64,000 nt of DNA, taken from contig NZ_CP152052.1 in the NCBI RefSeq assembly GCF_038637725.1, positions 2,091,501 through 2,155,500 of the forward strand. The letters are read 5' to 3'. Shown in pieces: positions 533 through 38,991 of the stretch (its first letter is position 1; each line of letters opens with the position of its first letter). Source of the DNA: Psychrobacillus sp. FSL H8-0483 (GTDB lineage: Bacteria; Bacillota; Bacilli; Bacillales_A; Planococcaceae). The position numbers and the translations under genes are program-made. The notes beneath the pieces are model-generated. The model worked only from the letters and a program-made list of their open reading frames with translations. It was not told where the DNA came from and ran no database searches.

Positions 533-1804
533 TTACTTATTGTTTAAAATCGGTGGTTCAGTTTCTTCCGGGGACAACTCTCTAATTAGAACTGGTACTG
601 GATAAGGAACCCCGTCTTGTTTTTCTAATTTTATGGAATAAAGGGTTTGCAGTGCTTGATGATCTTCTGGTCGGAAAGTCATTTTTCCTTTTGGTGTTTC
701 AAATGAAAGACCTTCCATTATTTTGATCAGTTCCGTTCCATCTGCATTACCTTCTGATTTTTTCAGTGCCTCTACAATTGCAATAGCCGCTGACATTCCA
801 CCTGGAGTGAATAAGTCAGGCACTGCACCGTCGAAACGTTTTTTATGTTCGTCTACTAACCAATCATTAATTTTATTTTTTGGTAGCGTATGATAATAGA
901 CGGAGAAGCCTTCCATTCCAACTAATGGCTCCATAATAGAAAGTGCCGGAATATCAGGTGCTCCTGTAGAAATTTTGATCCCTTTTTCTTGCAATTTTAA
1001 GTCTGCAATTTGGTTCCAAGGAGAATTTGCTCCTGCCCAAATGACAAATAGATAGTCCGGTTTTTCTTGGATGATTTTTTGTAAATTAGATGTGAAATCA
1101 GTCGCTGCTGGATCAGCAAATTCCTCCAGTACCACTTCTGCTCCTAACTTTTCTGCAGCCGTTTTAAATGCAGCTACGCCGTCCCAACCAAAGGAATAAT
1201 CTGGTGCAAATGTTGCAATTTTCACTCCTGGTTTTGCAATTGCCGCAGCACCTGCTACTGCATCTTGTGAAGAGTTACGTCCTGTTCTAAAAATATACGG
1301 ATTAAATTCTGAACCTGTAATACTATCTGCAACAGCAGGTTCAACTACCATAATCTTTTTATACTCTTCCGCTAGTGGAAGAACAGCTAATGTATCACCT
1401 GAACTCGAAGAACCTACTAGAAAATCAACCTCATCTTCTTCTAGTAACTTAGTTGCCTTTTGTACAGCAACTTCTGGTTTTGTTTCAGTATCTTCAAATA
1501 CAACTTCAATTTTCTTACCTGCGACTTCCATTGTTCCGTTAGTCGCGTATTCAAGACCTAATTCAAATCCATTTTTTGTTTGTTTTCCATAAGATTCTAG
1601 CGCTCCAGTTAAAGATGCAAGCACACCGATTTTAATCGTACCTGCTTCTTCTGTCACTTCACTTGAAACAGGAGTTGTCTCTTCCGTTGTTTCTTCCGTA
1701 GTTTGCTCTTCCTCTTTCGGTGTAGTTACAGCTTTTTCACTACAAGCCGCACTGAAAATCAAAACAAACAAAAGCGTCAGCAGTAATCCCAATTTTTTTG
1801 TCAT
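533..1804 (-). CDS. ABC transporter substrate-binding lipoprotein (LivJ/Peripla_BP_6 family)
   Basis: The 423-aa protein begins with a lipoprotein signal peptide ending in SAAC (Cys21 is the predicted lipidated residue). A Thr/Glu-rich linker (about residues 28-55) follows, then a type I periplasmic-binding fold starting at IKIGVLASLTGALESYG. That opening and the GSSSSGDTLAVLPLAEEY region are typical of branched-chain amino acid or amide receptors. The family captures amino acids, urea or amides outside the membrane and delivers them to Liv-type permeases. It lies just upstream of the LivG-like ATPase. A perfect cre box lies 22 bp before the start, implying CcpA catabolite control, and a BTAD regulator gene lies upstream on the same strand. 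The substrate is not assignable from sequence alone. Confidence 0.88.
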   Translation of the reverse strand: MTKKLGLLLTLLFVLIFSAACSEKAVTTPKEEEQTTEETTEETTPVSSEVTEEAGTIKIGVLASLTGALESYGKQTKNGFELGLEYATNGTMEVAGKKIEVVFEDTETKPEVAVQKATKLLEEDEVDFLVGSSSSGDTLAVLPLAEEYKKIMVVEPAVADSITGSEFNPYIFRTGRNSSQDAVAGAAAIAKPGVKIATFAPDYSFGWDGVAAFKTAAEKLGAEVVLEEFADPAATDFTSNLQKIIQEKPDYLFVIWAGANSPWNQIADLKLQEKGIKISTGAPDIPALSIMEPLVGMEGFSVYYHTLPKNKINDWLVDEHKKRFDGAVPDLFTPGGMSAAIAIVEALKKSEGNADGTELIKIMEGLSFETPKGKMTFRPEDHQALQTLYSIKLEKQDGVPYPVPVLIRELSPEETEPPILNNK

Positions 1805-1826
1805 GTAAATCCCCCTTCTAACATTT

Positions 1827-1840
1827 TGTAAGCGTTCTCA
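1827..1840 (-). promoter_or_regulatory. cre box (CcpA site) upstream of the binding-protein gene
   Basis: TGTAAGCGTTCTCA matches the catabolite-responsive element consensus TGWAANCGNTNWCA at every defined position. It lies between the ribosome-binding site of the lipoprotein gene and the upstream direct repeats, a position expected to affect transcription of the importer. Confidence 0.7.
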
Positions 1841-1856
1841 TGCTTCTACCCAATGG

Positions 1857-1890
1857 TACAAAAGAGTAGTTACAAAAGAGTTACAAAAAC
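1857..1890. promoter_or_regulatory. Phased direct repeats, candidate operator
   Basis: The motif TACAAAAGAG occurs at 1857-1866 and 1871-1880, and TACAAAAAC at 1882-1890. The last two are offset by 11 bp, about one helical turn; the first two by 14 bp. SARP/BTAD-family activators are known to bind direct repeats at roughly one-turn spacing, and a BTAD regulator gene lies next to this site. Binding by that protein is inference. Confidence 0.4.
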
Positions 1891-1906
1891 CCCCTTATGT
1901 AAATCT

Positions 1907-1930
1907 TTTGCGACGAGCTTAGCGCAGGAG
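1907..1930 (+). repeat. Single copy of the 'TTTGCGACGAGCTT..GCGCAGGAG' repeat
   Basis: This 24-bp sequence differs by one base (a TAGC versus TTGC variant) from the unit that is tandemly repeated three times at 12861-12952. It lies in the gap between the importer and regulator genes and marks a dispersed intergenic repeat family. Confidence 0.65.
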
Positions 1931-1967
1931 TGAAAGGTTGTATATTAAGTAGTTAGACAAAAGAACT

Positions 1968-1997
1968 CAAAAAGAGCAGAAAGAAAATTCTCTCTGC
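1968..1997 (-). terminator. Rho-independent terminator of the BTAD regulator gene
   Basis: On the minus strand GCAGAGAGA pairs with TCTTTCTGC (one G-U) around a 4-nt loop and is followed by CTCTTTTT. It directly follows the regulator gene, so the importer downstream probably has its own promoter. Confidence 0.65.
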
Positions 1998-1999
1998 AC

Positions 2000-4900
2000 T
2001 CATCCATAACTCCTAATCATTTCATACATTTGTATCGTTGTATTCATCGGTTCGATGTTTAATTCTGCTTCTAATACAGCAACACATCGTTCATACCATT
2101 TTACCGCTTGCGTTCTGTTTTGCTGCTGATAAAATGCATACATCATCAGTCGGTAAGCTTCTTCCCACGTAGATTCTATTTTTAAAAGTTTTTGTGCATA
2201 GAAAATTGTTTTCTCAAATTCTTTTAATCTGGTATATGTTTGAGCCAATCGTTCTAAGGCCATTACATATTGTTGTTGCGCTTTTTCTCGCTCATGTAAT
2301 ATCCAATCGATTGTAGACTTATCTTCTAGCAGTTCGCCTTTATATGCTTTAACCGCTTTTAATAACAGTTCCTTACATACATGAGGATCTTTCTCTTCTA
2401 AGCCTTTTTCTACACACGTTTGAAAAGCTTCTAAATCACTTTCAATAATTGCATCTGGATTTAGACGGTACATGGACTGCTTTCGAATAATAAAATAAGA
2501 TTCTTCTCTTGCTATACGATTAGGTTCAAGTACTTTTAATAAGGAGTTAAGTGCAACTTTAAAATCTCGATTCATCGTCTTTTCGTCGCTTTCCTCCCAT
2601 AATGCACGCATTAACTCTTCCTTAGGTACAAAGCGTTTTTTTTGCAAGTAAAGATACGTTAGTAATTCTTTCGATTTATCCCTTTGCCATTTTCGTTCAT
2701 TGATTTCTTGATTGCCCATAAAAAGTGAAAATGGACCAAGCAATTGAAGCCTCAGCTGATACCCAGGATAGGTGATATGTGGTTTAATATTTAACCGATT
2801 TGCAAGTACTTGGACTTGACTATTGCTTGGTAATAACTCACAAGCTTTTTGTATTACCGGATAAATCATCTGTAAGTCAACTGGACCAAAGACAGTTTTG
2901 TTTTGAAGAAAAAATAATAAATCATGGCGTAGACATATCTCTACAAACCTTTGTGCATGATCTATAAAAGATGCATCCTCCAGTAAACGAGTGTACATAC
3001 ACATTAACCAATAATTCGATATCATTTCCCCATACACATCGCCATTACTCGTAAAAAAGTCATTTGCTTCGCGACTTGTTAGTACTGCTTTTTCTAAAAG
3101 ATCATTTTCAAAATAAACAATTGTCAAACCTAGTAAGATATAAGCAGAAAGCCAGTAATCATTACTTTTAATCGTTTCACGCAACCCTTGTTCTCCGTAT
3201 GAAATCGCTTCTTGAACTCGCCCTTGTCTCGACTTTAATATAGAGAGGCCCATATATGGCTCTGCCTTTGCTCTCGAAACGTTTAACTCGTCCATAAGTT
3301 GAATAGCCTTGAGATAGCACGTTTCAGGAGTTTCCAAGTCGAATGGGTCAACTAATATTTCTGCATGACCTTTTCGGGTCCACCCTACCGCTTCTACAAA
3401 GCCTGACTTTTCTTTGATTCCCATCTCAATTCCTCTCATAGCAGACCGTTTTGCTGCATCGATATTACCAGTAAGCGAATAGATAAAGGAGAGTAGTACA
3501 TCTGTTTCCCGGTGAGAATCCGGTAAACCTACATCATCTCGAATGCGAGTTTCTAGCACTTGCTCTGCTTCATCTAACATACCAGTCCGCAAAAATATTC
3601 GTGCGTCTAGGTTACCTTCTTTTAATATAGCGGCATCTAACTGTTCCTGTATGACCCAATCCTTTGCATCATTTGCCTTCCCAAGATTCACTAAGTTTTC
3701 AGCTAGTAGCCTTTTTAAAAACATTCTTTCTGCAAAGTTATCCTGACTTTTATCAGCCCATTTGATTGCTTCTTCTAAATAAGGTTTTGCAAGTGCTGGT
3801 TGGATTGTATCCAAATAAATATGTGCAAGCCCTGCATTTGATCTGCTGACAAACAAAATATCTTCTTTTCCTGTAGCTAAAGCTAAACAAGTCTCATATG
3901 ACTTTCTTGCTTTCTCATAATAGGCTCTGTAACGATGACATTCGCCTTCAAAATAATATAACTCGTAAAATTGTTCTCTTGTTTGAAGAGAAAAGTTGTC
4001 TTTCATTAAATCTAATAGCCAGTCAAACTGTCCAGCCTGAATCATAGAATTAGCTGATAGGACGAGCATTTGACCAAGAAATAATTCGTCATTTGCTTTA
4101 ACAGCATGATAGATTGATTGAACTAAATTATGTTGTTCTTTAAAATAATGTGCTGCTTGTTTTTGCATGTCATAGTATAGCTGTTTATCCTTTTGTAGCC
4201 ATTTCGTTTCTAAAAACTGTTGAAACAACGCATGAAACCGGTATGCATTCGTACCGCTTAAAGATTGTATAAATGCATGACTACTTGTTAATCTTTCTAA
4301 ATGTTGGACCTCTGCTTCTCCAAAAAAGTCTCTAATTTCTTGGAATGTAAACAATGGGAAAATACTGAAGTTTAATAAGGATTGCTGGTCTTCTGCAGAC
4401 ATTAATAAAAATACTTCCTCGGACAAATACGAAAACAAATCTTTTAAAGCTGGATCAATTAATTGTGTAATTTGCTTATTCGTCTCAGTTACCTGTAGCG
4501 CTATTAAATGAATAGCAATTGCCCATCCTTCTGTTAAATTCATTATTTTTGCAGCTTCTTCACTTGAAATCGTTTTATCAAAATAATCTTCGAAAAACAC
4601 TTGGATTTCCTCTTCCGAAAACATGAAATCTGCTTCTTTTAATTCAACTAGTTGTCCACCTAACTTTAGTTTTAATAAAATAGACCATTTTGGCCGTATG
4701 CGTGAAGCAACGACTAAATGTATATTGGGTGGTAGAAACTCGATAATTTTCTCCACTATATAATTTATGTGAAATACGTGATCGACAAGATGAAAATCAT
4801 CTAGCACAATTGAAAATGGATTATCGATGCTTGCAAGTTCATTACTAAATAAGGAGTACCATCGTGTTAATTCGGTCTCTTTTGGATACATAGAGAGTAA

Positions 4901-5206
4901 ATCTTTATCCATGAGAGTCTTGCCAAAAGTAGGAATTACTTTTTGTATACTTTGAACTAAATGCCTTATAAAAGGGAGAATATCATCATCTTCTTCAGTA
5001 ATCGTATACCATGAGAACAATTCTTTAGAATCTGTAAAATATTGTGCGAGTGCAGAACTTTTACCAAAACCCGCACCACTATGTAAAAGGGAAAGTTTCT
5101 TATCCACATTAGATTTTAACTTCTTAATTAAGGATGATCTTCTCATATAATAAGAAGATGGGATAGGTGGGGTTAGTTTTGACATAATAATTGTAGTATT
5201 TACCAT
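2000..5206 (-). CDS. Large STAND ATPase transcription regulator with C-terminal BTAD (SARP-like) domain
   Basis: This 1068-aa protein has a MalT-like STAND NTPase at the N terminus, with a P-loop at SGAGFGKSS (about residues 43-51) and a Walker B-like IVLDDFH near 136-142. The middle is a long TPR-like helical repeat region. From about residue 815 an OmpR-type winged helix (LQLLGPFSLF, then KSKELLTYLYLQKKRFVPKEEL) and a BTAD domain follow. Such proteins sense a ligand through the helical array and activate transcription on oligomerisation. The ATG is preceded by GGAGGTGAAG. It lies upstream of the importer on the same strand but ends in its own terminator, so control of the adjacent importer is plausible but not shown. 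Confidence 0.85.
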   Translation of the reverse strand: MVNTTIIMSKLTPPIPSSYYMRRSSLIKKLKSNVDKKLSLLHSGAGFGKSSALAQYFTDSKELFSWYTITEEDDDILPFIRHLVQSIQKVIPTFGKTLMDKDLLSMYPKETELTRWYSLFSNELASIDNPFSIVLDDFHLVDHVFHINYIVEKIIEFLPPNIHLVVASRIRPKWSILLKLKLGGQLVELKEADFMFSEEEIQVFFEDYFDKTISSEEAAKIMNLTEGWAIAIHLIALQVTETNKQITQLIDPALKDLFSYLSEEVFLLMSAEDQQSLLNFSIFPLFTFQEIRDFFGEAEVQHLERLTSSHAFIQSLSGTNAYRFHALFQQFLETKWLQKDKQLYYDMQKQAAHYFKEQHNLVQSIYHAVKANDELFLGQMLVLSANSMIQAGQFDWLLDLMKDNFSLQTREQFYELYYFEGECHRYRAYYEKARKSYETCLALATGKEDILFVSRSNAGLAHIYLDTIQPALAKPYLEEAIKWADKSQDNFAERMFLKRLLAENLVNLGKANDAKDWVIQEQLDAAILKEGNLDARIFLRTGMLDEAEQVLETRIRDDVGLPDSHRETDVLLSFIYSLTGNIDAAKRSAMRGIEMGIKEKSGFVEAVGWTRKGHAEILVDPFDLETPETCYLKAIQLMDELNVSRAKAEPYMGLSILKSRQGRVQEAISYGEQGLRETIKSNDYWLSAYILLGLTIVYFENDLLEKAVLTSREANDFFTSNGDVYGEMISNYWLMCMYTRLLEDASFIDHAQRFVEICLRHDLLFFLQNKTVFGPVDLQMIYPVIQKACELLPSNSQVQVLANRLNIKPHITYPGYQLRLQLLGPFSLFMGNQEINERKWQRDKSKELLTYLYLQKKRFVPKEELMRALWEESDEKTMNRDFKVALNSLLKVLEPNRIAREESYFIIRKQSMYRLNPDAIIESDLEAFQTCVEKGLEEKDPHVCKELLLKAVKAYKGELLEDKSTIDWILHEREKAQQQYVMALERLAQTYTRLKEFEKTIFYAQKLLKIESTWEEAYRLMMYAFYQQQNRTQAVKWYERCVAVLEAELNIEPMNTTIQMYEMIRSYG

Positions 5207-5319
5207 ACTTCACCTCCATCTACAAAATTAGTTAAACATATCGTATCATATTAATATTCAAAATTGAATGCAAATTCAGATTTATTTACACGTTACACGA
5301 ACATGTTGTTACCCGTCGA

Positions 5320-5430
5320 AAATCCGCACTCTTTCCGCGGACGAACTGCTAAACCACCTAACTCGCAAGCTCGTTTAAGGGGTTCTTGGGAGTCCGTTTT
5401 TCCTCAGGAGTATAGCGGAGTTTCTTCACA
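5320..5430. repeat. Degenerate 'CTTTCCGCGG' Bacillales intergenic repeat
   Basis: The stretch starting AATCCGCACTCTTTCCGCGG and ending near GGAGTATAGCGGAG is a diverged copy of the GC-rich, imperfectly palindromic element seen more completely at 25611-25750 and inside 12674-13197. It is richer in GC than its surroundings. A 60-codon frame across it looks fortuitous. Confidence 0.55.
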
Positions 5431-5558
5431 AAATATGCTTCTATAAATAACAACCTAACTTACCAAAGCAAAAGTATTAATTATATTAAGGGAGTTTTAT
5501 CTGATTGTTGAAAATGTTATACTATTATAAGAAATATATGACAAGAGAGGAAGATTAG

Positions 5559-6101
5559 ATGGAGTTTCCTATACTAGATACAGAACGTTTGAAGTTAATA
5601 GAGATTAAGGAAGATCACGCATCTAGGATTTATTCAATCTTTTCAAACAAAGAAGTGATTAAATTTTACGGTATGTCCCCTTTTACCGAGGAAGAACAAG
5701 CTGTAAATTTAATTAAAACTTTTTCCACTAATTTTCAACAAAGAAGATCTATGCGTTGGGGAATCGTACGAAAAGATACTTCTCAATTTGTTGGGACGGT
5801 TGGGTTAAATAATCTCCTGATCTCAAACAAGCGTACAGAAATAGGATATGAGCTTTCACCAGAGCATTGGAGAAAAGGGATTATTAGTGAGGCTGTAGAA
5901 GCCGTTATTCAATATTGTTTTGAAGAGTTAGATATATATCGTATAGGAGCGGTTACATTTCCAGAAAACGAAGCATCCTATAAACTTCTACTAAAATTAG
6001 GTTTTCAAAAAGAGGGTTTGTTAAGAGGATATCTATATCAAGACAATCAATCACATGATGCATTCGTTTTTTCATTAATAAGACCTGATTGGGTTAAATG
6101 A
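5559..6101 (+). CDS. GNAT family N-acetyltransferase (RimJ/RimL-like)
   Basis: The 180-aa protein shows the RimJ/RimL layout: it starts FPILDTERLKLIEI, has the central strand GIVRKDTSQFVGTVGLNN, the acetyl-CoA motif A region GYELSPEHWRKGIISEAV (about residues 97-114) and a C-terminal ENEASYKLLLKLGFQKEGLLR. This group acetylates N-terminal or side-chain amines of ribosomal proteins or small molecules. The ATG follows AGAGAGGAAG. It is monocistronic. The substrate is unknown. Confidence 0.85.
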   Translation: MEFPILDTERLKLIEIKEDHASRIYSIFSNKEVIKFYGMSPFTEEEQAVNLIKTFSTNFQQRRSMRWGIVRKDTSQFVGTVGLNNLLISNKRTEIGYELSPEHWRKGIISEAVEAVIQYCFEELDIYRIGAVTFPENEASYKLLLKLGFQKEGLLRGYLYQDNQSHDAFVFSLIRPDWVK

Positions 6102-6159
6102 TCATTATGTTGTAACTCGTTGAGTAAAGGTGTTTTTTGTTCTATAAAAAGGACCTACA

Positions 6160-6250
6160 GATTGGTTAATACAAACGCCTAGATATCGAAGTTTTTAATA
6201 AAGAAGAGTACGAAGCTAAATAGTTAAAAAGATTAGAAGGATTTTTATAG
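6160..6250 (+). pseudogene. Possible 3' remnant of a decayed gene
   Basis: A short plus-strand frame reads YKRLDIEVFNKEEYEAK, meets a TAG, then continues in frame with LKRLEGFL before a second stop, immediately followed by a terminator hairpin. The protein-like composition and the terminator suggest the end of a former gene. The family was not identified. Confidence 0.25.
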
Positions 6251-6279
6251 ACGTAATCTATTGCTGATTACGTCTTTTT
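6250..6279 (+). terminator. Rho-independent terminator
   Basis: GACGTAAT (6250-6257) pairs with ATTACGTC (6267-6274) around a 9-nt loop and is followed by TTTTT. It would end the GNAT transcript, and perhaps formerly the decayed gene before it. Confidence 0.65.
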
Positions 6280-6324
6280 ACTTTGTATACTTCTTTGGAT
6301 ATTCCAAAATCGTTTTTCTTATTT

Positions 6325-6531
6325 TTATGCTCTTTTTAAATAAATTACTAGTTCCTGCTTGTACACATCATCTTCTATGTAGTGATCTAAATTGTGGAAA
6401 TCATACTTGAAGTGACCACTCGGAAATGTTACACTCTCTCCTTGCGCAGCAGCTAAAATACCCGCTACATCATTTGACACCAGTTGAAAAAGCTCCTGTC
6501 CATCTTCAGTTAAAACAAATACTATTTGCAT
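6325..6531 (-). CDS. Uncharacterised small protein, 68 aa
   Basis: A short soluble protein (MQIVFVLTEDGQELFQLV...) without membrane segments, cysteines or a motif I recognise. The start is well supported by GGAGGTGTGACAAA before ATG. Acidic residues dominate the C-terminal half (DHYIEDDVYKQELVIYLKRA). It stands alone downstream of the aconitase terminator. No function is offered. Confidence 0.65.
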   Translation of the reverse strand: MQIVFVLTEDGQELFQLVSNDVAGILAAAQGESVTFPSGHFKYDFHNLDHYIEDDVYKQELVIYLKRA

Positions 6532-6705
6532 TTTGTCACACCTCCTTCACCATTATACCTGTAATAATATAGACAGTCGCTAACAAAAAAGCATGTTATA
6601 CTGTTTCTTAATATTACTAGTTGTATCAGTGTATGTACATAAAATTAAGATAAAGCTAAAAATTCCTTTAGTTCAGCTTAAACTGTTCTAAAAATAGCTA
6701 TACGC

Positions 6706-6742
6706 AAAAAAAGGACCTAATTCACTTAGAATTAGGTCCTTT
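6706..6742 (-). terminator. Terminator of acnA
   Basis: AAAGGACCTAATTC (6710-6723) pairs with GAATTAGGTCCTTT (6729-6742) across a 5-nt loop. On the minus strand the hairpin is followed by a run of seven T. Confidence 0.85.
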
Positions 6743-6751
6743 CCTGTTGAC

Positions 6752-9460
6752 TTATGCTTCTAGCATTTTGTTACGTAATACCATTTGAAGGATACCACCG
6801 TGACGGTAGTAATCTACTTCTACTTCTGAGTCGAAACGAGCAAGCACGTCGAATACTTTTACAGAACCGTCTTCTGCTTTAGCTGTTACTTTTAAGATGT
6901 CGCGAGGTTTAACACCTTCTGCAATGTTTACACTGATTTCTTCTTTACCAGTTAAGCCAAGTGTTTCAGCATTTTCACCTGGTAAGAAATTAAGTGGTAA
7001 AACACCCATCATTACTAGGTTTGAACGGTGAATACGCTCAAAACTTTCCGTAATAACTGCTTTAATGCCTAAAAGGTTCGTTCCTTTAGCTGCCCAGTCA
7101 CGAGATGATCCCATTCCGTAATCTTTCCCGCCAATTACTACTAATCCAGTACCTTCTTCTTGATACTTCATTGCTGCATCATAGATAGACATAATTTCGC
7201 CAGTTGGCCAGTAAGTAGTGTATCCACCTTCTGTACCAGGAGCAACTTGGTTACGGATACGGATGTTTGCAAATGTACCGCGCATCATTACTTCATGGTT
7301 ACCACGTCGTGAACCATAAGAGTTAAAGTCACGAATTTCTACGCCATTTTCGCGCAAGTATTTACCTGCAGGAGTATCTTTACCAATCGCACCAGCTGGT
7401 GAAATATGGTCAGTCGTAATAGAATCACCGAATTTCGCCACAACACGAAGGCCAGCAAGCGTTTGGATATCACCAGGCTCTTTAGATAGTCCTTGGAAGA
7501 ATGGTGGGTTTTGAATGTAAGTTGATTTATCATTGAATGAATATAGAGATTCAGTTGATGTTTCAATTGCATTCCACGCTTCATTCTCATCAAATACACG
7601 TGCATATTCTTTTTGGAATAATTCACGAGTAACAACTGTTGAAAGCACTTCGTTTACTTCTTCTGTAGATGGCCAGATATCAGCAAAGAATACTTCGTTG
7701 CCATCTTTGTCTGTACCAAATGAATCTTTTTGTAAGTCGATATCTACTGTACCAGCAAGAGCATAAGCAACAACTAGTGGTGGTGATGCTAAGTAGTTCG
7801 CTTTTACAAGTGGATGTACACGACCTTCAAAGTTACGGTTACCAGAAAGAACTGAAGTTACGAATAAATCTTTCTCAATGATTGCTTTTTCAATTTCAGG
7901 AAGTAATGGACCGGAGTTACCGATACATGTTGTACAGCCGTATCCTACAGTATTGAAGCCAATTTCATCCAAGTATTTGTTTAATCCTGAATCTTGTAAA
8001 TAACCAGTAACAACTTTAGAACCAGGTGCTAAAGATGTTTTTACGTAAGCAGGAACAGTTAATCCTTTTTCAACTGCTTTCTTCGCAACTAAACCAGCAG
8101 CTAACATAACATACGGGTTAGATGTGTTTGTACATGAAGTGATTGCAGCGATAGCTACAGCACCAGTTGGAATCACAACATCTTGATCCGCAAATTTAGC
8201 AGTTGCAGTTTTATCGAATTCTTTTTCTGATAAACCGAAACCTTGTGTACCTTGTGGAGCAACAACTGCTTCATGGTAACGAGCTTTCATATCAGTAAGT
8301 GGGATTAAATCTTGTGGACGTTTTGGTCCAGAAAGGTTTGCTACGATATCTCCAAGATTAATTTCCACTACATTTGTATAAACAGGTTCTAGAGTTGGAT
8401 CAAAGAACATATCATTTGCTTTTAAGTAAGCTTCTACTACAGCAATATGTTCTTCGTCTCGTCCAGTTAGACGTAAATAGTTGATAGATTCTTCATCGAT
8501 TGCAAAATATCCACATGTAGCACCATACTCAGGAGCCATGTTAGCAATTGTCGCACGGTCAGCTAATGGTAACTTAGATACTCCAGGTCCGAAGAACTCA
8601 ACAAATTTACCAACAACACCTTGTTGACGTAAAACTTGTGTCACTTTAAGTGCTAAGTCAGTTGCAGTTGTTCCGTTTGGAAGATCTCCAACTAATTTAA
8701 CTCCGATTACTTCAGGAATTGGGAAGTATGAAGGTTGACCAAGCATTCCAGCTTCTGCTTCGATACCACCTACACCCCATCCAAGTACACCAAGACCGTT
8801 GATCATCGTTGTATGAGAGTCAGTACCTACTACTGAATCTGGGAATGTTTCTAATGTTCCATCAGCACTTTCGTTCACATGAACGATTGGAGCTAAATAC
8901 TCTAGATTTACTTGATGAACGATACCAGTTGCTGGTGGTACAGCACGGAAATTATCATAAGATGTTTGAGCCCATTTCAAGAAATTATAGCGCTCTGCAT
9001 TACGTTCGAACTCAAGGTCCATATTTGCTTGTAGTGCACTAGCAGTACCGTATTTATCTACTTGTACAGAGTGGTCGATAACAAGGTCAACTGGAATAGC
9101 AGGGTTGATTTTGTCTGGATTTCCTCCCATTTCGTTCATTGCTGAACGTAAAGAAGCTAAATCTACTACTACTGGTACTCCAGTAAAGTCTTGTAGTACA
9201 ACGCGTGAAGGTTTAAATGGCACTTCTGCTTCTGGGTCTGCATCTTTCCCCCATTTTGCTAGTTGTTCAACGTGCTCATCTTTAATCACATAACCATCAT
9301 GTTGACGTAATACAGATTCTAATAAAACTTTAATTGAATATGGAAGGCGTGATACATTTGCGATTCCCGCTTCTTCCAATGCAGCTAAACGGTAATAGTT
9401 ATATTCTTTACCATTTAGTGAAAAAGAAGTCCGGCTGTTGTGTAAGCTACTCTTTGCCAT
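6752..9460 (-). CDS. acnA: Aconitate hydratase AcnA (CitB)
   Basis: This 902-aa cytoplasmic TCA-cycle enzyme isomerises citrate to isocitrate with a [4Fe-4S] cluster. The cluster ligands are visible as Cys443 ([10 protein letters not shown]) and Cys509/Cys512 ([12 protein letters not shown]). Length and the C-terminal swivel domain ([19 protein letters not shown]) match AcnA/IRP-type aconitases, which can also bind RNA when the cluster is lost. The ATG follows AGGAGGAATATAA. It has a good SigA promoter (TTTACT-17-TATGAT, 9521-9549) and a CcpC-like dyad at 9566-9580. Transcription ends at 6706-6742. Confidence 0.97.
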
Positions 9461-35582: not shown

Positions 35583-36203
35583 TTAGGCTTTAGTTGTTTG
35601 TTCTTGTTCATATCTATAGTTAACCAATGCTTCAATTGTCACAAACTTCAATCCATGAAATTCAGCAATTTTCTTTAATTCTGGAACTCTCGCCATTTCA
35701 CCGTTCTCACTCATTATTTCGCAAATGACACCAGCAGGTTGAACCCCGCAAATTTTTGCAAAATCAACTGCAGCCTCTGTATGACCTCGCCTTTCAAGTA
35801 CACCGTTATCCTTTGCAACAAGTGGGAATACATGACCAGGACGGCGAAAATCTGTACTTACTGATGCTGCATTTACCAGTTGTAAAGTCGTTTCTGAACG
35901 CTCAAATGCACTAATACCTGTTTCCGTCGTCTTATAATCCACACTTACCGTAAAGGCAGTTTGGTGATTGTCCGTATTATGAGCGACCATCGGATACAAG
36001 TCGAGACGATCCGCTATTTTTTTCGTAATAGGCGTGCAAATTAAACCACGACCATATGTAGCCATAAAGTTAATATTTTCTGGGGTTGCGGAATCAGCCA
36101 GTACCAGAAAATCCCCCTCATTTTCACGATTCTCATCATCTACCACGATAATGATCTTACCTCTTTTTAAATCTTCAATTGCTTCTTCAATTGTATTGAA
36201 CAT
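35583..36203 (-). CDS. ribB: 3,4-dihydroxy-2-butanone-4-phosphate synthase RibB, stand-alone
   Basis: The 206-aa protein contains a full RibB domain: [17 protein letters not shown] (metal-binding Glu pair), [53 protein letters not shown] and [14 protein letters not shown]. It makes the four-carbon unit from ribulose 5-phosphate. In Bacillus this domain is normally the N-terminal half of RibBA; here the protein stops right at the interdomain linker ([19 protein letters not shown]) and no GTP cyclohydrolase II domain follows. It starts 20 bp after ribE. Confidence 0.94.
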
Positions 36204-36223: not shown

Positions 36224-36862
36224 TTAAAATCCGTTTTGTCTTAAAAAATCCATTGAAATCGATGAATTCTCTTGTTTTCGCTCTAGTTGGTTAATAACAT
36301 ACTTGCCAAGTAAATCATTTTCAATGTTCACCGTATCATGCTCTCTTTTGATCCCTAAAATGGTCTCGCTGAATGTAACTGGAATGAGTGAAACAGTCAG
36401 TTGCGTAGGTTGAACATCAAAAATAGTTAAACTAATACCATCAATCGCGACCGAACCTTTTAGCATACAGTATTTACTTAGTTCTTTACTGACACCAATA
36501 TCCACGTATACCGCGTTTTCTAGTTTTCTTTTTCTCAAAATTACACCCGTTCCATCCACATGGCCCGAAACAAAATGACCGCCAAATCGTCCATTTGCTG
36601 GCATTGCACGTTCCAAATTAACAACATGTCCTATTTGCAAGGATCGAATATTTGTAGCCTTTACCGTTTCTGGCATGACATCAACGGTGAATAGGTTATT
36701 CGAAAATGATATAACGGTTAAACAAACACCATTAACTGCAATACTGTCTCCCAAATGGATGTCTTCTACAATCTTTTTGGATTCTAATGTTAACTGCATG
36801 CTATTTGCTCCGCTTTTCATTGCTTTAACCTTGCCTAAATCTTCTACAATTCCTGTGAACAT
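36224..36862 (-). CDS. ribE: Riboflavin synthase alpha subunit RibE
   Basis: The 212-aa protein has two tandem lumazine-binding domains: [36 protein letters not shown], then [20 protein letters not shown] and [15 protein letters not shown]. It dismutates two lumazines to riboflavin and the RibD-family product's successor substrate. The ATG at 36862 follows GAGGTGATGCAA; the few in-frame codons upstream are not needed. It is the first gene of the operon, directly behind two FMN riboswitches. Confidence 0.95.
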
Positions 36863-36977
36863 TTGCATCACCTCGTTTCGCATTCAATTAGATTTCAAGT
36901 ATTCCTTCTTCATTCAGTAGTTTTGAAACTCACCAACTTCAAAAGAATGAACTACTTGAAATTCATTCGGGTTTACT

Positions 36978-37012
36978 CAAAAATAAAACCCCTTAGAGAA
37001 TAATCTAAGGGG
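36978..37012 (-). terminator. Riboswitch-controlled terminator, proximal unit
   Basis: CCCCTTAGA (36989-36997) pairs with TCTAAGGGG (37004-37012) over a 6-nt loop; on the minus strand TTTTATTTTT follows. It lies between the proximal FMN aptamer and ribE, as the off-state terminator. Confidence 0.85.
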
Positions 37013-37095
37013 TGGTTAGGAAATCTATGTTGGAAGCATCGACAAATAAACCTTTTGAAGTGTATTTTCTCCACAAGGAAATAAGCTTGCTCGCA

Positions 37096-37221
37096 CATCC
37101 TTCTCCCATCCAGACTATACTGTCGGCTTTGGATTTACACCAAATCCTGCCTTATAAAAGGCTCACGGGCTTAGAATTTCTTCATCACCGTCGATTGGAA
37201 ATTTCACCCGACCCCGAAGGA
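37096..37221 (-). ncRNA. FMN riboswitch (RFN element), proximal copy
   Basis: The minus-strand RNA carries the RFN core: CCTTCGGGGTCGGGTGAAAT at the 5' end, then CGACGGTGATGAAG, AAGCCCGTGAGCC, GGATTTGGTGTAAATCC, AAGCCGACAGTATAGTCTGG and GGGAGAAGGATG. FMN binding should favour the downstream terminator at 36978-37012 and shut off ribE-ribB-ribH. Confidence 0.96.
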
Positions 37222-37252
37222 GTGCTCATATGAAATTTTGTTCGGTTTTACT

Positions 37253-37289
37253 CAAAAATAAAACCCCATAGATAATGTTCTCTACGGGG
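37253..37289 (-). terminator. Riboswitch-controlled terminator, distal unit
   Basis: CCCCATAGA (37264-37272) pairs with TCTACGGGG (37281-37289); the mismatch at DNA level is a G-U pair in the minus-strand RNA. TTTTATTTTT follows, as in the proximal unit. Confidence 0.8.
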
Positions 37290-37371
37290 GATCTGGAAAT
37301 TATGTATGAAGCATCGACAAATAAACCTTTTGGAGTGTATTTTTCTCCATAAGGAAATAAGCTTACTCGTA

Positions 37372-37497
37372 CATCCTTCTCCCATCCAGACTATACTGTC
37401 GGCTTTGGATTTACACCAAATCCTGCCTTAAAAAAGGCTCACGGGCTTAGAATTTCTTCATCACCGTCGATTGGGAATTTCACCCGACCCCGAAGGA
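37372..37497 (-). ncRNA. FMN riboswitch (RFN element), distal copy
   Basis: This aptamer is almost identical to the proximal copy: I count two base differences across about 126 nt, and it lies 276 bp further upstream. It has its own terminator at 37253-37289, so the leader contains two complete aptamer-terminator units in series. Confidence 0.96.
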
Positions 37498-37903
37498 CTA
37501 TTCATCTATAAAATTTAATATAGCACTTTTATGATAAAAAATCATCTCTAAAGTATTAAAATGCATAAAAACTATTAATCAATCATTTTTTTCTCATGAA
37601 TTCTCTCAAATGGAATGTTTAGCTCACGTATTTTTTGATCTATTCGAATGCTTATTCCCTCTATTAATTGGCCATTTTTCTTGAGCTACAATTCCTTCCC
37701 ATCTGAAAAATAAAATACATAAAAACGCTGGACATCCTCATTTTCTAAGCATCAAAATAATGAATACTATCAATGTCTACCCAAGAATAGCTATCGAAGA
37801 ATTTTACTTATTTTAATGTGTCAGAAGGTAATAATTTTTTTATGGAGAATAAATAAAAGATGGCTGTTTTTCTATAGCCGATATTTTAGGAAGGGGTGAC
37901 GTT
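37498..37903. other. Intergenic region upstream of the riboflavin leader
   Basis: Apart from the presumed rib promoter just above 37500 (AT-rich; a minus-strand TATATT is present, but no convincing -35), I see nothing that I can name in these 400 bp. Confidence 0.4.
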
Positions 37904-38001: not shown

Positions 38002-38991
38002 ATGATGAATTTAGGAATCATGGTAAGAGGATTATCTGCCAACACTGTTGCCCAGAAACTTATTCAATTTTGGGAACATGACGCGGGTACTTTAAAAGTT
38101 TGGCGCGCAAGTTCAAACTTTGTGTATGCTTTTGAACATAATCAAGTTCCATACTTTTTACGATTTAGTTTTGAACAAGATAATTCCATTGAACAAATAA
38201 AAGCCGAGCTAGAGTTCATGCACTATTTACAGTCCAACAAATTTCCATGTGTATCACCAATTCCCTCCATAAGTGGTGAACTAATCGAAACAATAGAGAC
38301 TCAACACGGGACATATATTGCGGTAGTCTTTAGTGCTGCAAACGGAACCAATCTAGACTCCGAAACAATCACCGAAAATCAGATGGAGGAATGGGGAAAA
38401 TCCCTTGCATCTCTTCATTGTTTGTCTAGGAATTTCGAGCCTGTATCTGAAAGAAGAAAGAGTTGGTTGGACAAAGTAGAGTTTATGGAAAACGTGTTTC
38501 AAAAGCACCCGCAGGAACAAGAAGCACTTCAGGAACTAAGTACGGTGAGTTCCTGGCTTCAATCATTACCTACTACAAGTGACGTACATGGTTTAATACA
38601 TTACGATTTTGAATTGGATAATATGTTTTATAAAGAGAATGAGGATCATAGTTTCATTATCATCGACTTTGACGATGCCATGTATCATTGGTATGCACTA
38701 GATATTGTTTCGGCTCTTGATGATTTTATTGATAATGACAATCTCCATTCAGATTTATTGGTTCAGTCTTTTTTGAACGGGTATGGCTCTGTATCTGCTA
38801 TAGAAAACGATGTAGTGAATCAGTTTAAACAGTTTCAAAGATACGCAAAACTATATAAGTTTGCGAGATTGTTATCGTCATTAGATTATGGGGAAATTAA
38901 TGAAAAGCCACCTTGGCTGGATGAATTAAGGGGAAAATTAATTCGTGTCTCAGATGAATTGAGAAAAAGCTTTCAAAAATCGATAAACTAA
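38002..38991 (+). CDS. Aminoglycoside phosphotransferase (APH)-fold kinase
   Basis: The 329-aa protein has the APH/choline kinase fold: nucleotide loop WRASSNFVYAFEHNQVPYFL, Brenner-type catalytic loop LIHYDFELDNMFY (HxDxxxxN) and metal-binding IIIDFDDAMYHW. Family members phosphorylate antibiotics, choline, homoserine or other small hydroxyl compounds; the sequence is closer to uncharacterised Bacillus kinases than to a known resistance enzyme, so resistance should not be assumed. GGGAGG lies 11 bases before the first of two ATGs. A terminator follows at 39193. Confidence 0.82.
   Translation: MMNLGIMVRGLSANTVAQKLIQFWEHDAGTLKVWRASSNFVYAFEHNQVPYFLRFSFEQDNSIEQIKAELEFMHYLQSNKFPCVSPIPSISGELIETIETQHGTYIAVVFSAANGTNLDSETITENQMEEWGKSLASLHCLSRNFEPVSERRKSWLDKVEFMENVFQKHPQEQEALQELSTVSSWLQSLPTTSDVHGLIHYDFELDNMFYKENEDHSFIIIDFDDAMYHWYALDIVSALDDFIDNDNLHSDLLVQSFLNGYGSVSAIENDVVNQFKQFQRYAKLYKFARLLSSLDYGEINEKPPWLDELRGKLIRVSDELRKSFQKSIN

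What the first reader, a model, noticed from the sequence alone, without database searches (positions are those of the whole stretch)
36978..37497. Two nearly identical FMN riboswitches in tandem, each with its own terminator
Seen directly: RFN elements at 37096-37221 and 37372-37497 (276 bp apart, about two differences in 126 nt), each followed by a GGGG-stem terminator with the same TTTTATTTTT tail, all before ribE. Single RFN leaders are the rule. Two serial off-switches would give tighter repression and a steeper FMN response, as known for tandem TPP riboswitches. The near identity implies a recent duplication or gene conversion.
Basis: seen in the sequence. Interest (0 to 1): 0.72.

Follow-up and report, generated by a model that had tools for sequence, protein, structure and literature searches.

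The report
Two FMN riboswitches in series
Two complete copies of a vitamin-B2-sensing RNA switch sit one after the other before the riboflavin genes of a soil bacterium; this arrangement is already on record as a kind, but it turns out to be common in this bacterial family, where some relatives carry up to five copies.

Summary
Each has its own intrinsic terminator, then ribE-ribB-ribH follow. Best reading: two independent, serial FMN-off transcription attenuators.

It is no assembly accident. 17 of the 19 genomes of the genus (Psychrobacillus) that were searched carry 2-3 copies; the other 2 have no ribE match. Arrays occur in 13 of 19 family genera, against 1 of 24 same-class genomes of other families and 0 of 90 drawn phylum-wide. 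None of 27 ribU loci has one.

[quoted passage not shown] Relatives here go further: two quadruplets and one quintuplet. In one sister clade, platforms keep their place while aptamers are alike within a genome, which fits recombination through the aptamers. The modelled gain in steepness is modest (81-fold to 40-fold range); lower leak and EC50 gain more.

The parts
37370..37501 (-). FMN aptamer 1 (promoter-proximal)
   Evidence: RF00050, 116.3 bits, full length
37264..37289 (-). intrinsic terminator 1 (stem-loop; T tail runs on to 37254)
   Evidence: consensus scan; hairpin -15.2 kcal/mol
37094..37225 (-). FMN aptamer 2 (gene-proximal)
   Evidence: RF00050, 108.9 bits, full length
37199..37199 (-). 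private change C to T in P2 of aptamer 2 (G-C becomes G.U)
   Evidence: position 27 of the aptamer; the only one of 122 units compared with this P2 sequence
36988..37013 (-). intrinsic terminator 2 (stem-loop; T tail runs on to 36978)
   Evidence: consensus scan; hairpin -15.9 kcal/mol
37531..37559 (-). promoter-like site nearest upstream of aptamer 1 (TTAATA, 17, TATCAT; weak)
   Evidence: 9 of 12 consensus matches; 9 such sites found in the region on both strands, 4.5 expected; not evidence of function. No minus-strand promoter-like site of that scan lies between the two units
36224..36883 (-). ribE, riboflavin synthase
   Evidence: TIGR00187, 258.2 bits, cut-off 156.6
35583..36203 (-). ribB, DHBP synthase domain only, without the GTP cyclohydrolase II domain
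   Evidence: PF00926 over residues 6-196 of 206, the only Pfam family matched; TIGR00506
35044..35508 (-). ribH, lumazine synthase
   Evidence: TIGR00114, 193.2 bits

Best explanation
A tandem FMN riboswitch of the kind called pseudo-cooperative: two complete, independent transcription-attenuation off-switches in one leader RNA. RNA polymerase starts upstream of 37501 and meets unit 1. If FMN binds aptamer 1, its P1 helix is held and terminator 1 forms. Transcripts that escape meet unit 2 and face the same decision. Only RNAs that pass both reach ribE-ribB-ribH, so read-through is the product of the two. Shown here: two full aptamers, two terminators, gene order, occurrence in relatives. Inferred: FMN binding, termination, the antiterminator, and the use of one promoter. 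The copies have probably been kept alike by selection on the aptamers together with recombination between units, and relatives carry 3, 4 and 5 units.
For: Full-length RF00050 matches. A terminator after each, and after 122 of 123 units in 52 loci (window included; the miss is a unit cut by a run of N). In both window units the fold with P1 forced (terminator present) is 9.2 and 5.9 kcal/mol less stable than the free fold that breaks P1 (-67.7 against -76.9; -72.6 against -78.5), as expected if ligand pays for the off state. Over 122 units the terminator's 5' arm pairs upstream more than shuffled arms do, though the gap is small (mean 0.62 against 0.55; 92 of 122 units). Arrays of 2-3 in 17 of the 19 genus genomes searched, from separate assemblies. 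Arrays precede biosynthetic operons; 0 of 27 ribU loci have one.
Against: No expression or binding data. Aptamer 2 has a private G.U in P2 and scores 7.4 bits lower, so it may bind FMN less well. The antiterminator rests on single-sequence folds; the shuffled-arm contrast is small and the units are related. In the free MFE of unit 2 the terminator stays formed beside the P1-breaking helix, so its switch is less clear-cut than that of unit 1. A promoter between the units cannot be excluded by a consensus scan.
Confidence: 0.86

Rival explanations
1. Assembly or sequencing duplication: only one riboswitch really exists.
For: The two aptamers differ at only 2 of 126 positions; reads were not available.
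Against: The expression platforms differ clearly (80.7% identity over 105 nt), as do the terminator stems. 16 other genomes of the genus show two or three units in separate assemblies, as do many of the family.
Confidence: 0.01
2. A glycine-type cooperative pair: two aptamers that bind cooperatively and share one expression platform.
For: Two aptamers of one class in one leader.
Against: Each aptamer has its own terminator; so do 122 of 123 units compared. Spacing between units varies widely, 190-328 bp in the doublets of the genomes.
Confidence: 0.03
3. Only one unit works; the other is a decaying or redundant copy, or serves as a second, less sensitive threshold. In this window the candidate for drift is aptamer 2 with its G.U in P2.
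For: Private P2 change in aptamer 2, 1 of 122 units; in one relative (G066) the locus before ribE shows only two sub-threshold matches, 39.8 and 35.1 bits.
Against: All units in the 17 rib operons of the genus keep a full aptamer and a terminator.
Confidence: 0.1

Closest known systems
Tandem (pseudo-cooperative) FMN riboswitches, PMC9481103 (31 doublet and four triplet cases)
   Same: Two complete same-class riboswitches with no listed ORF on their strand between them before one operon; the gap between aptamers is 144 nt, under that survey's limit of 300 nt.
   Different: Nothing in the window differs in kind. In relatives there are arrays of 4 and 5, which that passage does not list. Whether these species were among its cases is unknown: its supplements were not open to me.
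Tandem TPP riboswitches (Bacillus anthracis; Welz and Breaker 2007, recalled and seen only in the reference list of PMC2258182)
   Same: Same serial logic: each aptamer with its own expression platform (PMC2258182, passage).
   Different: Other ligand; those were tested at the bench (recalled), this was not.
Tandem glycine riboswitches
   Same: Two aptamers of one class in one leader.
   Different: Glycine pairs share one expression platform (PMC2258182, passage); here each aptamer has a terminator.

Membership tests
FMN riboswitch (RF00050) | covariance-model match above the gathering score, full length | tested here: met
   116.3 and 108.9 bits against 66.2, model positions 1-138
FMN riboswitch (RF00050) | lies before riboflavin biosynthesis or transport genes | tested here: met
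   ribE-ribB-ribH downstream
FMN riboswitch (RF00050) | binds FMN | not testable with these tools
   no binding data
tandem pseudo-cooperative riboswitch | two or more complete riboswitches of one class with no ORF between them | tested here: met
   the one listed ORF of 60 aa or more that overlaps the array, 37012-37233, is on the opposite strand, lies mostly on aptamer 2 and has no Pfam match
tandem pseudo-cooperative riboswitch | each aptamer has its own expression platform | tested here: met
   two terminators
tandem pseudo-cooperative riboswitch | independent action giving a steeper dose-response | not testable with these tools
   model only
cooperative dual-aptamer riboswitch (glycine type) | two aptamers, one shared expression platform | tested here: not met
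   a terminator follows each aptamer

The most novel reading that the evidence does not exclude
In this family the FMN riboswitch is a copy-number-variable array that tunes riboflavin synthesis. Recombination runs mainly through the longest near-identical segment, the aptamer, so arrays grow and shrink as (aptamer + platform p1)n followed by aptamer + platform p2. Upstream units multiply, the gene-proximal platform mostly stays single, and aptamers are homogenised; now and then, as perhaps in the window itself, a whole unit is overwritten. Copy number, from 1 to at least 5, would act as an evolutionary setting for EC50 and leak. Arrays of four and five are longer than the FMN arrays reported in the 2022 survey. 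(Probability lowered from 0.4, because the window's own second platform is first-platform-like.)
Probability: 0.35. Interest if true: 0.52.

Novelty: new member of a known kind. Interest (0 to 1): 0.36.

Why it matters
As a kind it is on record. What the comparison adds is a natural series of 1, 2, 3, 4 and 5 FMN switches before riboflavin operons within one bacterial family. That series would let the predicted effect of serial switches (lower EC50, multiplied repression, limited gain in steepness) be tested directly. The contrast between aptamers and platforms in some clades gives a testable account of how riboswitch arrays grow. Riboflavin production and flavin-analogue sensitivity depend on FMN leaders of this kind (general knowledge, not tested here).

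Tried and rejected
Assembly duplication: rejected by the same arrangement in 16 other genomes of the genus.

Duplication very recent and private to this strain: not favoured, because two or three units are present in the other rib operons of the genus and the window's two platforms are only 80.7% identical. A later overwriting of unit 2 by unit 1 in this lineage is not excluded.

Glycine-like cooperative pair: rejected, two terminators.

Third FMN element as part of the same system: the genome's third match (C1:1574082) is a single leader before a 208-aa ECF transporter S component, which I call ribU. PF12822 passes its cut-off; the riboflavin-specific PF07155 does not (22.8 against 26.7 bits).

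An FMN switch before the separate ribA-ribD pair: none at gathering score in L116.

Idea that arrays always grow by copying the upstream unit: the last unit is the platform outlier in 13 of 17 arrays of three or more. Exceptions are Lederbergia citrisecunda, G097 and G124; the fourth miss, G112, turns into a hit if its unit cut by a run of N is left out. The arrays are not independent by descent. For G208 only the first of its two leaders was counted.

Gene conversion in the window's own clade: weak. Per column, aptamers within-genome 5, by position 9, crosswise 2; platforms 16, 38 and 17. The window against its seven relatives one by one, platforms summed: 13, 19 and 10.

One ancestral doublet for the whole family: not shown. 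Between 11 clade representatives, platforms as well as aptamers agree within genomes more than by position (428, 105, 111 and 839, 24, 18), which would also follow from separate duplications.

Literature: no paper on FMN arrays of four or more, or on recombination in riboswitch arrays, turned up in the listings. Searches returned mostly unrelated papers, so this is a weak negative.

Full report
What is there. On the minus strand the window carries, in order: FMN aptamer 1 (37501-37370), terminator 1 (37289-37264), FMN aptamer 2 (37225-37094), terminator 2 (37013-36988), ribE (36883-36224), ribB (36203-35583) and ribH (35508-35044). Both aptamers match RF00050 over its whole length, at 116.3 and 108.9 bits against a gathering score of 66.2. 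The two expression platforms are 80.7% identical over 105 nt, and both terminators run into the same T tail. The genome is one contig of 4.14 Mb with three FMN matches in all; the third is a single leader before an ECF transporter S component.

Which organism. Six contigs of the unnamed same-genus genomes have the same lengths as named records: Psychrobacillus soli, P. lasiicapitis, P. psychrotolerans, P. vulpis, Psychrobacillus sp. OK032, and one filed as Bacillus sp. FJAT-22090. I infer from this that the genus is Psychrobacillus.

How common. One search drew 61 genomes, 19 of them of the genus (window included). 17 of the 19 have tandem arrays before ribE: 14 doublets and 3 triplets (G004, G008, G009). 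The other two, G013 and G018, have one FMN element, before ribU, and no ribE match. Of the 18 representatives of other family genera, 6 have arrays: G022, G030, G032, G033, G035, G036. Of the 24 same-class genomes from other families, 1 does (G057). Of 90 other genomes drawn phylum-wide, 83 of which have a match, 0 do, read by eye from the position table; G038 is in both of these sets, and contig ends could hide a copy. In a family sample of 200 the position table was cut, so I asked again for the 11 new genomes with four or more matches and for 45 new three-match ones. All 11 and 43 of the 45 have arrays. These 56 were chosen for their high match counts; 24 more three-match genomes, and the new genomes with two or fewer matches, were not positioned. 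Taken together, 13 of 19 family genera hold at least one array.

Longer arrays. G136 has five complete FMN elements at 201-202 bp spacing before ribD-ribE-ribBA-ribH. G103 and G035 have four. G112 has three complete units and one cut by a run of N. G208 has a triplet plus, 5 kb on, a second leader of two full units and a partial one before a second ribD-ribE, a segmental duplication that could be an assembly effect. Every array that was read with its genes precedes ribE or ribD; of 27 distinct ribU loci, 0 have more than one FMN hit. For most of the doublets the genes were not read.

How it works. Terminators follow 122 of 123 units compared, in 52 loci that include the window and three single-unit loci. 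In both window units, forcing P1 costs 9.2 and 5.9 kcal/mol against the free fold, which breaks P1 and pairs aptamer strands with the platform. This is as expected for an off-switch in which FMN pays for P1; in unit 2, though, the terminator survives in the free fold. Over 122 units the terminator's 5' arm pairs upstream with mean probability 0.62, against 0.55 for shuffled arms, higher in 92 of 122: small, and the units are related. For n independent identical switches the read-through is (1/(1+x))^n. Two give an EC50 of 0.41 Kd and a 10-90% range of 40-fold instead of 81; five give 0.15 Kd and 27.5-fold. So extra units mainly lower the EC50 and the leak; steepness soon saturates. Extra units also cost expression when FMN is low, if unliganded read-through is below 1.

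Age and homogenisation. For pairs of genomes I counted sites where copies agree within a genome ('within'), by position ('pos'), or crosswise ('cross', which also needs two changes and so serves as a null for parallel change). First and last units were used. In the Psychrobacillus clade of G004, G005, G007, G008, G009 and G015 the counts over all 15 pairs are: aptamers within 43, pos 11, cross 6; platforms within 4, pos 454, cross 11. In three disjoint pairs: aptamers 10, 2, 0; platforms 1, 94, 0. There the doublet is older than the species, platforms keep their place and aptamers have been homogenised. In the window's clade of eight, all pairs: aptamers 43, 56, 4; platforms 51, 138, 39; four disjoint pairs: aptamers 8, 10, 0; platforms 7, 32, 3. 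In four Lederbergia-like loci the aptamers give 5, 1, 0. In five Lysinibacillus they go by position (4, 74, 1), against homogenisation there, and in three Neobacillus-like loci likewise (0, 6, 2). Between 11 clade representatives both parts go with the genome (aptamers 839, 24, 18; platforms 428, 105, 111), so one ancestral doublet for the family is not shown. In 13 of 17 arrays of three or more, the gene-proximal platform is the odd one out (14 of 17 without the unit cut by N). Recombination through the aptamers would produce this: it multiplies upstream units and leaves the last platform single.

The window itself departs from that rule. Its second platform is closer to the first platform than to the second of ten relatives in 9 of 10 comparisons (for example 0.771 against 0.600 for Neobacillus vireti, 0.714 against 0.575 for G003; the exception is G011, 0.759 against 0.761). 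So in this lineage unit 2 may have been overwritten or re-copied from unit 1. The two window platforms (0.807) are about as far apart as the window's first platform is from those of sister genomes (0.675-0.809, seven relatives), so this is not clearly recent.

A private detail. Aptamer 2 of the window has T for C in P2 (37199), turning a G-C pair into G.U. It is the only one of 122 units with that sequence. Three others fell outside the search pattern: G057_2 and G065_1 have changes on both sides of P2, and G002_1 has an extra GGGTG that misplaced the pattern. The change may lower FMN affinity.

Operon history. The ribE tree puts the genus in four places: the window's clade with Neobacillus vireti, N. 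novalis, Lederbergia and Rummeliibacillus; the G004-G015 clade; G002 with P. vulpis; and G001 with G030 (quick tree of 45 rows, SH-aLRT support, deep forks weak). This suggests exchange of the operon between genera, and all four versions in Psychrobacillus carry arrays. In this genome ribA and ribD form a separate pair near 2.385 Mb with no FMN element at gathering score in the 3.4 kb read, so two steps of the pathway appear to lie outside the switch.

What is known. PMC9481103 (passages; sections 5 and 28 read) names FMN among pseudo-cooperative tandem riboswitches, with 31 doublets and four triplets in RefSeq 80 plus environmental data. PMC2258182 (passages) says tandem TPP or AdoCbl arrangements are under 1% of leaders of those classes. 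The window is thus a new member of a known kind. The arrays of four and five, and the family-wide concentration, were not found in print in the listings; those searches are not exhaustive.

Noticed in passing
L152 (G136), 1524-2442: Five complete FMN aptamers in a row at 201-202 bp spacing before ribD-ribE-ribBA-ribH; quadruplets in L154 (G103) and L135 (G035).
   Followed up: yes
window 35583-36203; L116 261-2145: ribB here lacks the ribA domain; a free-standing ribA and ribD pair lies about 256 kb away with no FMN element at gathering score, so part of the pathway appears to escape the switch.
   Followed up: partly
G013 and G018 (L137, L138): Two genomes of the genus have the FMN-controlled ribU but no ribE match: perhaps riboflavin auxotrophs.
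   Followed up: partly
L036, L037, L038, L041-L044: ribE of Neobacillus vireti, N. novalis, Lederbergia and two Bacillus sp. is 76-88% identical to the window's, against 55-58% in the other Neobacillus listed; these operons also carry FMN doublets or a triplet. Looks like transfer of the operon with its leader.
   Followed up: partly
L153 (G208), 1538-8794: Leader, ribD, ribE and the start of ribB appear twice 5 kb apart, the second leader with a partial first unit; segmental duplication or assembly effect.
   Followed up: no
L163 (G066), flipped 1374-1660: Two sub-threshold FMN matches (39.8 and 35.1 bits) before ribE; nhmmer sees the 5' part of an aptamer and, further on, a 3' part: a decayed or split riboswitch.
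   Followed up: no
L164 (G130), 1643-2985: FMN element plus a ribD fragment duplicated 1058 bp upstream of the FMN-ribD operon.
   Followed up: no
window 38002-38991: Divergent neighbour: APH-family phosphotransferase (PF01636); its homoserine kinase matches stay far below cut-off.
   Followed up: no
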